A stretch of 64,000 bases of DNA from contig JAZGGI010000024.1 of NCBI GenBank assembly GCA_036480375.1, positions 62,001 to 126,000 of the forward strand, in the 5' to 3' direction. Shown here piece by piece: positions 2,051 through 7,503 of this stretch. How positions within the stretch are numbered: position 1 is the first letter of the stretch; each line of letters begins with the position of its first letter. This DNA is from Candidatus Zixiibacteriota bacterium. Lineage in GTDB: Bacteria; Zixibacteria; MSB-5A5; GN15; JAAZOE01. The notes beneath the pieces were generated by a model. That model made no database searches, was not told the DNA's origin, and saw only the letters and a program-made list of their open reading frames with translations. A program made the position numbers and the translations under genes.

Positions 2051-2097
2051 ATGGTCAATCCCGAGTTTTATCTTAAGTCGAGTAAGTGAATCATCAA

Positions 2098-2250
2098 ATG
2101 CCGTCACCCATTAATAAATTTAAGAAAATCACAATACAAGAAATCCTTGGCGCGATTCAGGAATACGATAAAAACAAAATTTCACTCTCGGTATTGGAAA
2201 AAAGACGTACTTTCATACCCTTAACTTCGCATTTGTTTGATTTTCCATAA
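2098..2250 (+). CDS. Small ORF of 50 codons, possible gene fragment
   Basis: An ATG at 2098 opens a 50-codon frame ending in TAA at 2248-2250. It is lysine-rich, with a segment ITIQEILGAIQEYDKNK that looks like real protein rather than random sequence. No ribosome binding site is evident. It may be the start of a longer gene cut short by a later deletion. I do not recognise a family. The rest of 2051-2353 holds nothing I can name. Confidence 0.22.
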   Translation: MPSPINKFKKITIQEILGAIQEYDKNKISLSVLEKRRTFIPLTSHLFDFP

Positions 2251-2353
2251 TCCATATACTAACTAATCTCAACCCCTGTGTACAGATTCATCTGGGAAAT
2301 CCGGGTTTAATATTGCCTGATACCTAATTCTACATTCTTCTGCTCCCCATTAT

Positions 2354-3022
2354 CTAATACCTAAGCAGAACGGATACCAATACCCCGGAAAATCTTTTCT
2401 CCTTGTTGAAATCCACGAACCAGCACAGCCCGAATCCCCATTGTCTAAGTGGCGTCCAGTACACTTGTGCTTCAACTGGAAAAGCGATAGCGTTGTAGGT
2501 AATTTTTTCGTATATGGTCTCCGTGTGTAAAAAGCTCATCTCGTGGGAAATCAGCTCCCCGTGCCGGACTCCTTCTAACACACTCAATCCGCCTGAGAGA
2601 GAAACCATGAATTTGGCACTCTTAGTGAACCAGCCATAGAGCACGCCATAGTCCCGGGTATTTTCCAGCGGCCTGATCTTACTTGTCCCAATGCCCGAGA
2701 TATTTCCTTCTTTGTCATCCTGCCATGCGCAAATGAACCTGCCGGTTAGAATGCCCCTCCACACACGTTGAGAATAGCCAACCCTGAAAGCGCCAGAGCC
2801 AGCATCTGGCGCATGACTTGAACTGGTACCGATTCCTAAACTGAACCAGTGCATTTTCTCATCAGGAGGATCTGCAGGCTGCGAAGACTCTTCAGCGGAA
2901 GAAGATATTGAGGCGAACAGCAGGCAGAAACAGATCCCCCAGGCAAGGTTTCTCAGCCGGATCAGATCGACGGCAGGGATCACGTGAAAAAGTCCGGCAG
3001 CATTTTGAATAAGTCCAAACAT
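2354..3022 (-). CDS. Hypothetical secreted protein, outer-membrane beta-barrel-like
   Basis: The start is placed at the ATG at 3022 because GGGAG lies eight bases upstream; the open frame extends further 5' without a better site. The 222-residue product has an N-terminal hydrophobic segment (about residues 23-42) ending in a small-residue stretch that could be a signal peptide. The rest has alternating hydrophobic/aromatic strands (for example FRVGYSQRVWRGILTGRFICAW) and an aromatic C-terminus (VLLRY). That pattern suits a small outer-membrane barrel. No named family is recognised. It lies alone between the DedA gene and the accessory stretch, on the opposite strand to DedA. Confidence 0.5.
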   Translation of the reverse strand: MFGLIQNAAGLFHVIPAVDLIRLRNLAWGICFCLLFASISSSAEESSQPADPPDEKMHWFSLGIGTSSSHAPDAGSGAFRVGYSQRVWRGILTGRFICAWQDDKEGNISGIGTSKIRPLENTRDYGVLYGWFTKSAKFMVSLSGGLSVLEGVRHGELISHEMSFLHTETIYEKITYNAIAFPVEAQVYWTPLRQWGFGLCWFVDFNKEKRFSGVLVSVLLRY

Positions 3023-3390
3023 AATGAAATCTCCCGTTTTGAGAATATAAGACACTTCTTTTGTCCAGGACATAAGTAGCCCGCGCTTGCAGTTCCGAAA
3101 GGCTACTCCCCGCTCCCTCATTACTGTTTCCATGATCAACCTCGAGTTTGTCTCGTCTCGGCCTAACAATAATTAACCGAGATTTCCCATATAGGGATTC
3201 AAAAACACGGTTTGTCCCTTTGTATTTTGAATATACAAAAGTCTCCTGGAATTGGCAATAATTTACCCGCTTACTCCCCCGCACACCCCACCTGTGGCGG
3301 GTCACCGCCTTTGAAGACATAGTTTATTAGATACACGGATTCACGCACGTTTGTCTCACAATCGCCGTAAAAAAATAAATTATCCTCAGG

Positions 3391-3651
3391 TTGTGTTACA
3401 CCCGGTTAATTCCAGATTATGCCGTGCGACTGCCGTCATTTTTATGGGAAGAACCATTTGAACGGGGAACACGCTTTGCTATTTACAGATTGATAATTAA
3501 TATGCCGGAATTGCACAGCTTGTTTATTGATTACCTTGATGAATATATAAAATCACTGAAATCGGATAATGAATTTATTCGCGACTATCGGAAATTTGAA
3601 CGAGATCCAACTGCCTCAATGATTACTTCAACTGATTCTCAAGCAAGCTGA
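3391..3651 (+). CDS. Short ORF of unknown nature, possibly a gene remnant
   Basis: The frame opens with TTG and encodes 86 residues. The middle (RGTRFAIYRLIINMPELH followed by LFIDYLDEYIKSLK) looks protein-like and helical, but there is no convincing ribosome binding site. Its last codons run into the decayed YkgJ fragment on the other strand, so the C-terminal residues are probably accidental. It may be the end of a gene whose 5' part is lost. The surrounding bases 3023-3390 show no other gene. Confidence 0.22.
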   Translation: MCYTRLIPDYAVRLPSFLWEEPFERGTRFAIYRLIINMPELHSLFIDYLDEYIKSLKSDNEFIRDYRKFERDPTASMITSTDSQAS

Positions 3652-3712
3652 CGTGGGCCAGAGCGGCGTCTTTTTTTGCGCCACGTTTAATCAGTTCTTC
3701 GATGACATCTCG
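3623..3712 (-). pseudogene. Decayed 3'-end fragment of a YkgJ-family gene homologous to the intact copy ending at 6433
   Basis: Read on the minus strand, this stretch encodes about 30 residues ending LIKRGAKKDAALAHVSLL, then ENQLK and TAA. The last 17 residues are identical to the C-terminus of the intact gene whose stop is at 6433. Just upstream the residues are similar (DVIEEL against NIIDEL), and an in-frame stop then closes the frame near 3720. Most base differences between the copies are at third codon positions, so both were under protein-level selection before this copy was truncated. It is a relic of a homologous gene rather than a recent duplicate. With the intact end it brackets the AAA+ gene. 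Confidence 0.8.
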
Positions 3713-3733
3713 ATCAAATTAAATAAATATTAA

Positions 3734-6214
3734 TTATCGATCCGGTTGAAAAGATATTTTTACCAAGTCATTATCCTCGGCCTCCGCTAAGTTGAAATTC
3801 ATATCATACCAATCCTGCTCAAGAATGCTAATATGTCTGCTTAATTCTGCATCAGCCGCCAAACCGGTTAATTTGGGTGCGTCTGCGGCTCTGATAATAC
3901 CTTTGACAGGTGGTGTAAATTTATTTACGAATATTTGTAGGCTCCGAATTCCATTTTTGGGACGAATATTGTAAAAGAGTTCCAATATTTTTTTGTCAAC
4001 ATGCGTGATGGGTCCAAAAGACCTCTTAAATTGAAAAATCCCTTGATAAACTAATTCTGTTCTAAGGCTTTTGCTAAGCTTTGCGTTTTTATCCAAACTC
4101 CTTTGACGTTCACTTTCTTCCACTTTATGCTGTATCTGAATGCGGTCTTTTTCTTCAAGGTAATCCAGGTTTAGGATGTGACCGTTAATACGCGATAAAA
4201 AATCTCTGCCTTTGTCAGATTCCGTAAGTGAATCTGCCGGTTTCGTCAGGGCAAATACCCATACGCATGGATCTATTTTATTTGTGTTGCCTTCAATTTT
4301 GAATTCGCCGTCCCACATAGGCCCCAGAAAGAGCCCCAAAGGGTTGTGTCCCTCAATCCTGGCATCGGTCTCATCCATAAATACCAAAACTTTTTTATTA
4401 GTCCGTTTCTGCGTAGAGACAATTACTTTAAATGAATCAATAAGATCCTCGTTTGAAGCCATCTGGGCAATTGAAAACGGCAAATATTCAAAGTCAAAAT
4501 GATCAGATAAACATCGGGCCAGGTAGCTTTTGCCCCAACCCGGTTCGGAAATAAACAGGCAATTGAAAGGAAATTTGGGATTTTCTATTTTACTGAAACT
4601 ATTCAGCGAAGAGATCAGGTTGTTTATTGCAGATCGTTTTGCTCCACCGGGGCATATATAATCTGTCAATGTTCCGCATGACCGCCACACTTGCAATTCA
4701 TCTGTCTGGCGTTGCTCATTCTTATTTCGCAAAATTATTCCCTGTTCTTTTGAAGACCTATTCCAGTCCTCCCAGGATCGTCCATATTTTAAAGCTTGGC
4801 GTTTCGGTTTTTTTGAGGGAGGGGATGATAGAGAATTCCACATAATCACTTGGTCGAATGGCCCGCTAAGCTGATCCGGCTGTTTATCGTGCCAGGCGTC
4901 TGTGCATTCCTGCGTCCAACGATACATATTAGATAAAGCGCGACCGCACAAATCATAGATATTATCTGAATTAGATCCGGCCTCATCCTCATCCGACATC
5001 AGATCCAGATGAATCAGCGAATTGAAGAAAATGGAGGTTCTCCCTACCTGGATCGGCATAATGTCACCTGACGGCGGTGGGATGTAATACATATTGGCGT
5101 CATTTGAGTTATCCGGTCTGCTGGCTGCCAGTGCGGAATTATCTTCAAATAAGATAGCCGCATGCAATGCTTTGGGATATTTATTCTGTTCCTTTCTTTT
5201 ACCATGTTTATATGTATGAAGGCCAAGCATGTCGCCCATCGCCTCAAGAGCCCCTCGACCCAAATAAGCCCCATGACGATAACGACGGATACCGTATTGA
5301 TACTTAATTAATTGTTCGTCTTTGATAATTAGTCTTAATTTCTTTTTCCTTTTTTTAAGATAGTTTAACCATGATGGTTCTGCACGCTTCAAGCGAACAT
5401 ACCATTTCTTATCTTTATATTTCTCATACAGAATTTCTATCACCTTATCATTTATAACTCCTTTTCCATGATCGACTATGACCACGGCTTCAACATCCTT
5501 TATTTCTTTTATAATATCTTTTATCCTTTTGTCGGGTAGTTTGCTTTCGTCAATTTCTAATTTCCAGTCAAATCGATAAAGTAATTCGGGCTGATCTCCG
5601 CCGAATCCCTCATATATGCGAAAAATCCGATTTGTGGATGAGTGATTAGAGTTTTCTTCGTTAAATAGATTTATCATTTCCAGATGATCCTGCAACTCAC
5701 AAGGACAATCATCATAGGGACAGATTCGTCTGAGCTTTGCCTTAGAATTATTATCGTCAGGTTTATAATGGTCAGGAACCTTGAGCCCTTCCAATTTGTA
5801 TGGATTCATACTTTTATCACGGTGTTTTTTGGGGCATAATACGCATTCAATAATTTCGTTATCACGAGGATTCCAGGCGCTAACGCCTAAAAGTTCATAT
5901 TTCTTTAATAATGGATTTTCTTCTTCCTCTTCTAAATTTTCGGATCTGCCCGGCCCATATAATATTTTCAATGAATTTCCGACACCGCACAAACTAAAAA
6001 TCATGCTTTTCGGCCCCTCCAGGTAACTTATGTAATGATGCTTACCCACATTGGTGCTACTATAACTTTCGTGCTTGGCCATAAGCCAATTTTCATCAAT
6101 AAAAAGATCCCCAATTACAAGGATTTTTTTCTTATTTTTTTCCATAGAAACATTTTTATCCTTTTGCATATCTATTTGTAAAGAGTTGGTTTTATTATTG
6201 GTTTTTTTTGCCAT
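3734..6214 (-). CDS. Large AAA+ ATPase with an N-terminal degenerate PfkB/ribokinase-like region
   Basis: The ATG at 6214 is preceded by GGGAGG at good spacing, giving 826 residues. The N-terminal part resembles a ribokinase/PfkB fold: KKILVIGDLFIDEN near residues 29-42, CGVGNSLKIL near 76-85, and AVVIVDHGKGVIND near 243-256. The C-terminal catalytic GAGD loop of sugar kinases is not seen; the matching place reads QVGRTSIFFNSL (about 389-400), so the kinase is probably inactive. A Cys set (C-x2-C, then C-x4-C-x-C at about 124-172) could bind metal. The C-terminal part is an AAA+ module with Walker A SEPGWGKS (about 556-563), Walker B VLVFMDETD (about 610-618) and a possible arginine-bearing segment GRDFLSR. 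It is AT-richer than its neighbours, is monocistronic and lies between two versions of a YkgJ gene end. The function is unknown; regulation or defence are possibilities only. Confidence 0.75.
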   Translation of the reverse strand: MAKKTNNKTNSLQIDMQKDKNVSMEKNKKKILVIGDLFIDENWLMAKHESYSSTNVGKHHYISYLEGPKSMIFSLCGVGNSLKILYGPGRSENLEEEEENPLLKKYELLGVSAWNPRDNEIIECVLCPKKHRDKSMNPYKLEGLKVPDHYKPDDNNSKAKLRRICPYDDCPCELQDHLEMINLFNEENSNHSSTNRIFRIYEGFGGDQPELLYRFDWKLEIDESKLPDKRIKDIIKEIKDVEAVVIVDHGKGVINDKVIEILYEKYKDKKWYVRLKRAEPSWLNYLKKRKKKLRLIIKDEQLIKYQYGIRRYRHGAYLGRGALEAMGDMLGLHTYKHGKRKEQNKYPKALHAAILFEDNSALAASRPDNSNDANMYYIPPPSGDIMPIQVGRTSIFFNSLIHLDLMSDEDEAGSNSDNIYDLCGRALSNMYRWTQECTDAWHDKQPDQLSGPFDQVIMWNSLSSPPSKKPKRQALKYGRSWEDWNRSSKEQGIILRNKNEQRQTDELQVWRSCGTLTDYICPGGAKRSAINNLISSLNSFSKIENPKFPFNCLFISEPGWGKSYLARCLSDHFDFEYLPFSIAQMASNEDLIDSFKVIVSTQKRTNKKVLVFMDETDARIEGHNPLGLFLGPMWDGEFKIEGNTNKIDPCVWVFALTKPADSLTESDKGRDFLSRINGHILNLDYLEEKDRIQIQHKVEESERQRSLDKNAKLSKSLRTELVYQGIFQFKRSFGPITHVDKKILELFYNIRPKNGIRSLQIFVNKFTPPVKGIIRAADAPKLTGLAADAELSRHISILEQDWYDMNFNLAEAEDNDLVKISFQPDR

Positions 6215-6432
6215 GATATCCTCCCGCACCTATTATCCCCAAATGGAATTATTGAAAGACCTAATTAAAATACTATTTATGATTTGAAAGTCAAGGAGAC
6301 GAAACAATTGTTTTTATTAAAGTTATAGAAATTATTTTTATGAAAATCAATTGTGGATTGTAGATAATATATAGGGAGTGAGGCGCTTTACTTTGCCGAA
6401 CAATTACACAGGTGTCCCCGGCGCAGTTTATG

Positions 6433-7503
6433 CTATTTCAGCTGATTCTCAAGCAAGCTGACATGGGCCAAAGCGGCATCTTTTTTTACACCTCGCTTGA
6501 TCAATTCATCAATAATATTTTTCTTCGGCATTCCATCCGCGAATAGTCTCGTGACATGAATTGAAAGTTCTACCGGTGATGTCACGCCTTCGACAAATTT
6601 CCAATTGGTGTTATTGGCAATGGCTTTTTGTTCCTCAGAGAACCCGCCAAACGCCGCCCGCCATTTGGGAACCGGGACGATGTCATTCATATCGGAAGCC
6701 ATTTTCTTTTTGCTGACTTCCAGCGCTTGTGATTTGATTTTCATCGTCTGTTCGCCAAAAATAGCGAATTTAATCCAGTCAAACGCGAATTTCAAAAGTT
6801 TAATATCGTCTGACTTAAGCTGCTCAACCAACTCATTTTCGATTTCAATTTTATCTAAAAAACTGCTCTTGAAGACAAAATCCCGGAACTTATCAATATT
6901 ATAGCAGGCTGTGAAAAACATCTCCATCCGCTTGGGATCGATGTGATTCCCTTTTTCAAAGAAATCGCTGAGACTTATTTCTTTGAACCAGTTTCCATAT
7001 TCATTGTATTCTTCAATACCCTGGTCGGCCAGCCATTCACCGACGGTGATAGTATTATCTTCGTTGTGACCTTTGCAGGTCTCCTCCTTAAGCAGAAAAA
7101 AGAAGTCTCTCTCATTGTCCGTCTGGTCGGCTTTGGGCGATGCCAATCCCAAAGGATACATGCGGCATGGCCAGGGGCGATCTTCGTAAACCGTACATCC
7201 CTGCTCAGCGACAAACGGACACGATTTCTTCTCATTGTCCTCCATTTTGAGAAGCAGTACCGGGTATTTAGCGTTCTCGTCAAACGGAGAAATTGTATAG
7301 CGTGAAAGAAATTCACCCGAGGTTATCCCTAGGCGATTTTTAAGACGAATAATATCATAAGAAGTCAGAAAGATATTCACGTCCCCGCAACAATCATTAA
7401 AACAGGGAACATCCTTATGACATTTAAAGCAAAATTCGCTTTTCTCATCCATACGCGGATAGTCTTCGAGTATCGCTTTCTTGAGATTTTCAATTTCCCG
7501 CAT
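6433..7503 (-). CDS. YkgJ-family cysteine-cluster protein
   Basis: This 356-residue protein carries the YkgJ (PF03692) Cys-rich region in its first 140 residues: C25, C28, C34, C38 and C39, then CPFVAEQGC and PWPCRMYPLG. The family is thought to chelate zinc or an iron-sulfur centre. The C-terminal 200 residues are helical and not assigned. The start is three bases after the stop of the zinc-ribbon gene, so the two are co-transcribed, downstream of the sat-aprB-aprA terminator. Proximity to aprBA suggests a role linked to sulfate reduction, but this is inference. The 3' end is represented again, in decayed form, at 3623-3712. Confidence 0.8.
   Translation of the reverse strand: MREIENLKKAILEDYPRMDEKSEFCFKCHKDVPCFNDCCGDVNIFLTSYDIIRLKNRLGITSGEFLSRYTISPFDENAKYPVLLLKMEDNEKKSCPFVAEQGCTVYEDRPWPCRMYPLGLASPKADQTDNERDFFFLLKEETCKGHNEDNTITVGEWLADQGIEEYNEYGNWFKEISLSDFFEKGNHIDPKRMEMFFTACYNIDKFRDFVFKSSFLDKIEIENELVEQLKSDDIKLLKFAFDWIKFAIFGEQTMKIKSQALEVSKKKMASDMNDIVPVPKWRAAFGGFSEEQKAIANNTNWKFVEGVTSPVELSIHVTRLFADGMPKKNIIDELIKRGVKKDAALAHVSLLENQLK

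What the first reader, a model, noticed from the sequence alone, without database searches (positions are those of the whole stretch)
3734..6214. AAA+ ATPase fused to a degenerate PfkB/ribokinase-like domain: possible undescribed system
Seen: ILVIGDLFIDEN, GVGNSLKIL and VVIVDHGKGVI are in the order of a sugar-kinase fold, but the catalytic GAGD loop is replaced by QVGRTSIF. A Cys set and a C-terminal AAA+ module (SEPGWGKS, VLVFMDETD) follow. Inference: the kinase half may sense a nucleotide or sugar and drive the ATPase. It stands alone in an AT-rich stretch bordered by a gene relic. I know of no named family with this order, but I could not search.
Basis: partly seen in the sequence, partly recalled or inferred. 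Interest (0 to 1): 0.7.

Follow-up and report, generated by a model that had tools for sequence, protein, structure and literature searches.

The report
Dead sugar kinase driving AAA+ ATPase
A rare bacterial gene joins a sugar-kinase fold that has lost its catalytic residue to an intact AAA+ ATP-burning motor; no family library names it, and its distant relatives often sit among genes for bacterial self-defence, so it is probably an unstudied sense-and-respond protein.

Summary
ORF 3734-6214(-) (826 aa; GGGAGG 5 nt before the ATG) has an N-terminal ribokinase/PfkB-like domain closest to HldA/RfaE and a C-terminal AAA+ module with Walker A/B and candidate arginine finger and sensor-2 intact. 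In all four window-type proteins found (Zixibacteria, 28-49% identity) the catalytic GAGD loop reads G-R-T-[S/T], so the kinase base is lost, while the ligand-side GDxxID motif is invariant. Pfam sees only a generic AAA domain, NCBIfam a weak RfaE hit, PADLOC nothing.

I also found a sister family: the same AAA+ clade (hhalign E 8e-23) behind a degenerate ribokinase-like domain, often with a C-terminal RyR domain. In three of four informative loci it lies beside conflict-type genes (TIR-NB-ARC-TPR, DUF4062-NTPase, giant SIR2, RelA-SLOG-RyR).

The window gene stands alone within DNA absent from a relative's ykgJ-dedA junction, flanked by an 85-bp repeat of the ykgJ 3' end. The architecture is secure. 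The function (ligand-sensing pseudokinase switching a AAA+ remodeller, probably in conflict or stress) is inferred, about 0.4.

The parts
3734..6214 (-). pfkB-like pseudokinase / AAA+ fusion gene, 826 aa (GTG alternative at 6229 gives 831 aa; residue numbers below are on the 831-aa form)
   Evidence: GGGAGG at 6225-6220, 5 nt before ATG 6214
4886..6130 (-). ribokinase/PfkB-like domain, residues ~34-448
6092..6112 (-). GDLFIDE, ligand-side motif retained (invariant GDxxIDE in 4/4)
5699..5845 (-). cysteine-bearing insert (CxxC ... C ... C in WIN, G115 and G129; differently spaced cysteines in G055): possible zinc-binding insert, specific to this clade
   Evidence: weak S27a zinc-ribbon matches E ~0.014
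5033..5044 (-). GRTS in place of GAGD: catalytic Asp absent (G-R-T-[S/T] in 4/4)
3830..4645 (-). AAA+ ATPase module, residues ~529-800
4526..4549 (-). Walker A SEPGWGKS
4364..4387 (-). Walker B LVFMDETD
4187..4204 (-). candidate arginine finger DFLSRI (DFxSR in 11/11 of both clades)
3938..3952 (-). candidate sensor-2 GIRSL (xRS in 11/11)
3623..3708 (-). second, truncated copy of the ykgJ 3' end (last 27 codons plus stop); 82% identical to 6434-6518
6433..6518 (-). 3' end of the present ykgJ-like gene (partner copy of the direct repeat)
2051..6432 (.). 4.4-kb segment absent from the ykgJ/dedA junction of relative G001
3391..3651 (+). relic fragment of a conserved protein that is in open frames of 194-311 aa in relatives

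Best explanation
This belongs to an unnamed two-domain family. A ribokinase/RfaE-like domain that has kept its sugar/nucleoside-side pocket motif and lost its catalytic base is fused to a complete AAA+ ATPase. Most likely the pseudokinase binds a small ligand (sugar-phosphate, nucleoside or nucleotide-derived signal), and ligand state controls oligomerisation and ATPase activity of the AAA+ ring, which remodels or unfolds a partner. By relation to the RyR-bearing sister family the setting is probably cellular conflict or stress, and the window gene is a self-contained, horizontally acquired version. Shown: architecture, dead catalytic loop, intact AAA+ motifs, sister family and its conflict-type neighbours, absence of the segment in a relative, flanking repeat. 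Inferred: ligand sensing, ATPase coupling, target, defence/stress role, integration route.
For: Kinase fold. Loss of the GAGD Asp in 4/4 window-type proteins and 7/7 sisters. AAA+ motifs intact in both clades. AAA+ modules of the two clades homologous over ~254 columns: E 8e-20; E 8e-23; two separate clades, support 100/100. Sister neighbourhoods: DUF4062-NTPase-TPR and TIR-NB-ARC-TPR; RelA/SpoT-SLOG-RyR and two HATPase proteins; SIR2-like 2082-aa protein; plasmid locations. Patchy distribution, 4 of 133 genomes of the phylum, low GC, absence at the G001 junction and flanking repeat indicate acquisition.
Against: None of the four window-type genes has a conserved neighbour or a recognised defence gene beside it, so the conflict role is borrowed from the sister clade. 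PADLOC has no significant match. The sister kinase domain itself matches kinases only weakly (E 3.7e-4). AF2 models are of low confidence. One sister locus (G129) has housekeeping neighbours.
Confidence: 0.42

Rival explanations
1. Housekeeping AAA+ remodeller or activase (like a Rubisco-activase-type chaperone) in which the dead kinase domain is a docking scaffold for a metabolic enzyme or its substrate.
For: AAA+ resembles classical remodellers (Vps4, Rpt, p97); lone gene, no defence neighbours in the window-type loci; no terminator-like site found on the gene's strand between the sat-aprBA-ykgJ cluster and this gene.
Against: Patchy, in 4 of 133 genomes of the phylum; segment absent at the G001 junction; low GC; sister clade on plasmids and beside conflict-type genes.
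Confidence: 0.27
2. The gene is mobile-element machinery: an accessory ATPase for integration or conjugation of the element it rides on.
For: Flanking 85-bp repeat at a gene 3' end; sisters on plasmids, one next to tyrosine recombinases and one near a relaxase-like gene.
Against: No integrase, relaxase or transposase in the 4.4-kb segment; no flanking repeat found at three other window-type loci; sisters in chromosomal conflict-type clusters.
Confidence: 0.1
3. The kinase domain is an active but atypical kinase using another catalytic base, with the AAA+ module as regulator.
For: GDxxID and DHGxG positions equivalent to the RfaE substrate side are conserved.
Against: The Asp of GAGD is absent in all 11 proteins and the position varies freely in the sisters (E, S, T, C, V), which looks like loss, not relocation.
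Confidence: 0.07
4. A neutral, recently acquired gene on its way to decay.
For: Neighbouring relics in a segment that looks degraded.
Against: 2.5-kb frame intact with all motifs; orthologues at 28-49% identity keep the same motifs and open frames, so the family is under selection.
Confidence: 0.1

Closest known systems
RfaE/HldE/HldA D-glycero-beta-D-manno-heptose-7-phosphate kinase (PfkB/ribokinase superfamily)
   Same: GDxxxD, (C/G)GxxN and DxGxG blocks in order; NCBIfam, hhalign and Foldseek hits
   Different: No GAGD Asp, cysteine-bearing insert of ~50 residues, fused to AAA+, far below the family cut-off (27 against 345 bits)
Unnamed pseudokinase + AAA+ +/- RyR proteins (annotated 'RyR domain-containing protein' or 'hypothetical protein')
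   Same: Same AAA+ clade and same domain order; dead kinase loop
   Different: Separate clade with 100/100 support; sisters lack the clustered cysteine insert; most end in RyR, the window type does not
Classical AAA remodellers (Vps4/CdvC, Rpt, p97)
   Same: Walker A/B and AAA core (Pfam PF00004 above cut-off; Foldseek)
   Different: No MIT, N or proteasome-binding domain recognised; the sequence match covers only ~70 residues
SLOG/RelA/TIR/SIR2 nucleotide-centred conflict systems
   Same: Sister-clade genes lie next to such proteins and share the RyR domain with RelA-SLOG-RyR proteins
   Different: The window gene has no such neighbour, and no RyR domain was found anywhere in its genome

Membership tests
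PfkB/ribokinase superfamily (fold) | Sequence or structural homology to ribokinase-like kinases | tested here: met
   TIGR02198 E 2e-6; hhalign E 7e-7, reversed control 0.36; Foldseek HldA and PL kinase prob 1.00, from a low-confidence model
PfkB/ribokinase superfamily (enzymes) | GAGD catalytic Asp | tested here: not met
   G-R-T-[S/T] in 4/4
RfaE/HldE equivalog | Score above NCBIfam TIGR02198 cut-off | tested here: not met
   27.1 against 345 bits
AAA+ ATPase | Walker A, Walker B, Arg finger, sensor 2 | tested here: met
   PF00004 23.0 against 21.2 bits; motifs in 4/4; finger and sensor-2 assigned by sequence position, not by structure
Pseudokinase-AAA+ sister family | AAA+ module homologous over its whole length | tested here: met
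   E 8e-23 over 254 columns
Pseudokinase-AAA+ sister family | C-terminal RyR domain | tested here: not met
   No RyR hit in any window-type protein; also absent in the Streptomyces and L059 sisters
Known anti-phage defence systems (PADLOC 2.0.0) | Match to a defence model | tested here: not met
Known anti-phage defence systems | Protection against phage | not testable with these tools
   needs experiment

The most novel reading that the evidence does not exclude
The family is an undescribed class of immune or stress switch: a repurposed sugar-kinase fold reads a nucleotide- or sugar-derived alarm signal and fires a AAA+ effector, with RyR as a second sensor or adaptor in the sister branch, tying bacterial RyR domains to RelA-SLOG signal producers.
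Probability: 0.33. Interest if true: 0.78.

Novelty: new variant of a known kind. Interest (0 to 1): 0.52.

Why it matters
If the dead kinase is a ligand sensor, this is a new way to gate a AAA+ motor and would show a metabolic kinase fold recruited as a receptor. The sister branch would give the bacterial RyR domain a testable context (AAA+ switch, RelA-SLOG partner, TIR/SIR2 neighbours), where the papers searched here gave none.

Tried and rejected
Plasmid, phage and IMG/VR searches with the window protein or profile found no match. A genome-wide pattern scan found only the three Zixibacteria orthologues. The zinc-ribbon hit to S27a (E ~0.014) is too weak to assign. WH_AprA, methyltransferase and HLA hits are chance level. 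Flanking repeats at the other window-type loci were sought and not found. Paper searches found no description of the architecture or of bacterial RyR-AAA proteins; Burroughs et al. 2015 (10.1093/nar/gkv1267), which might discuss RyR, was not held. AF2 gave low-confidence models with only four sequences, so the fold evidence rests on agreement between sequence profiles and Foldseek.

Full report
What is there. The ORF on the minus strand runs from a GTG at 6229, or more likely from the ATG at 6214 (GGGAGG 5 nt upstream), to 3734. It encodes 826-831 aa in a low-GC stretch (0.394 against 0.455 for the window). The window's genome is a Candidatus Zixiibacteriota relative: the named orthologues are Zixiibacteriota MAGs, and the genome search places those same loci in the window's order, class and phylum.

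N-terminal half. Three lines of evidence place it in the ribokinase superfamily nearest to RfaE/HldA: NCBIfam TIGR02198 (E 2.1e-6); tblastn and hhalign to RfaE-type kinases of other Zixibacteria (E 6.7e-7 against 0.36 for a reversed control); and Foldseek of the AF2 models (HldA top hit for the N-terminal model at E 2.1e-3; pyridoxal kinase 3.3e-5 and HldA 4.5e-5, prob 1.00, for the full model). The models themselves are poor (mean pLDDT 48), so these fold hits support but do not prove the fold. In a joint alignment the GAGD loop of true kinases becomes G-R-T-[S/T] in all four window-type proteins, while GDxxIDE is invariant. The domain has probably lost phosphotransfer but kept a binding site (inference). 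A cysteine-bearing insert (CxxC...C...C in three of four, respaced in the fourth) is specific to this clade.

C-terminal half. Pfam AAA (23.0 against cut-off 21.2 bits), with Walker A SEPGWGKS, Walker B LVFMDETD, DFLSRI and GIRSL. These four motifs are conserved, with small spelling variants, in 11 of 11 proteins of two clades, so an active ATPase is likely (inference).

Relatives. Four of 133 genomes of the phylum carry the window type; the three others are 49, 33 and 28% identical to the window protein. None was found in plasmids, phages or viral contigs. The same AAA+ module occurs in a sister family (hhalign E 8e-20 with four sisters, 8e-23 with seven) that forms its own clade (100/100). 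Sisters have a degenerate ribokinase-like N-terminus: the Asp of GAGD is replaced in 7 of 7 (GIDE, GTGS, GYST, GRLT, GIGT, GYGC, GNNV), GDxxxD is kept in 5 of the 6 whose N-terminus is complete, and the profile match to kinases is weak (E 3.7e-4 against 0.17 for the reversed control). Five of the seven end in a RyR domain; the Streptomyces and L059 members do not.

Sister neighbourhoods. G060: between a DUF4062-NTPase-TPR protein and a TIR-NB-ARC-TPR protein. G176, outside the phylum: next to two HATPase proteins and a RelA/SpoT-SLOG-RyR protein. Methylobacterium plasmid: near a 2082-aa SIR2-like protein. G129: beside helicase-like and TypA-like genes, with a contig end on the other side. These four are the loci I call informative; three have conflict-type neighbours. 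The Streptomyces plasmid gene lies next to tyrosine recombinases, and an IMG/VR contig that reads as a plasmid has relaxase-, coupling- and antirestriction-like genes (gene names from my reading of the ORFs); both point to mobility rather than to a function. G386 is on a contig too short to judge. That a RyR domain is shared by the AAA+ protein and the adjacent RelA-SLOG protein in G176 suggests a common signal or partner (inference).

How the window gene got there. In G001 ykgJ and dedA lie about 90 bp apart, tail to tail; in the window 4.4 kb separates them. An 85-bp direct repeat at 82% identity flanks the gene: the last 27 codons and stop of ykgJ recur just beyond the gene's own stop (3623-3708), with 24 of 27 residues the same and most base differences synonymous. 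This looks like the footprint of an element that enters the 3' end of a gene and carries a replacement end. But no integrase is present, the ykgJ C-terminal extension is absent from relatives, and the remains of a tandem duplicate would look similar. Acquisition is likely; the route is open. Read-through from the sat-aprBA-ykgJ cluster is possible, as no terminator-like site was found on that strand.

Mechanism. I think the pseudokinase domain senses a small ligand and gates AAA+ assembly or ATPase, in a conflict or stress response. Steps shown: domains, dead loop, intact ATPase motifs, sister contexts. Steps inferred: ligand, coupling, target, role. The main rival is a housekeeping remodeller with the kinase fold as a docking domain.

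Novelty. Each half belongs to a known fold; the order and the dead-kinase-AAA+ coupling belong to no family in Pfam, NCBIfam, PADLOC or PHROGs, and no paper found here describes them. I therefore rate it a new variant of a known kind (sensor-coupled AAA+ protein).

Noticed in passing
window 3623-3708 and 6433-6518: 85-bp direct repeat flanking the gene: the 3' end of ykgJ duplicated, 24 of 27 residues the same while 15 of 85 bases differ; the ykgJ C-terminal ~80 residues are absent from relatives G001 and G002.
   Followed up: partly
window 3391-3651: Relic of a conserved ~230-aa protein whose homologues lie beside rubrerythrin- and ferritin-like ORFs in some relatives (L070-L072).
   Followed up: partly
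L060:10647-13226; L061:4573-7110: RelA/SpoT-RyR proteins (SLOG/LSDAT_prok also detected in L060) in genomes outside the phylum, one of them next to a pseudokinase-AAA-RyR gene: a possible signal-producer and RyR partner pair.
   Followed up: partly
L059: IMG/VR 'viral' contig that reads as a conjugative plasmid (relaxase-, coupling-, ParB- and ArdC-like ORFs) carrying a RyR-less sister.
   Followed up: no
window 2354-3169: Small outer-membrane-like ORF in the segment absent from G001, with weak relatives in five other genomes.
   Followed up: no
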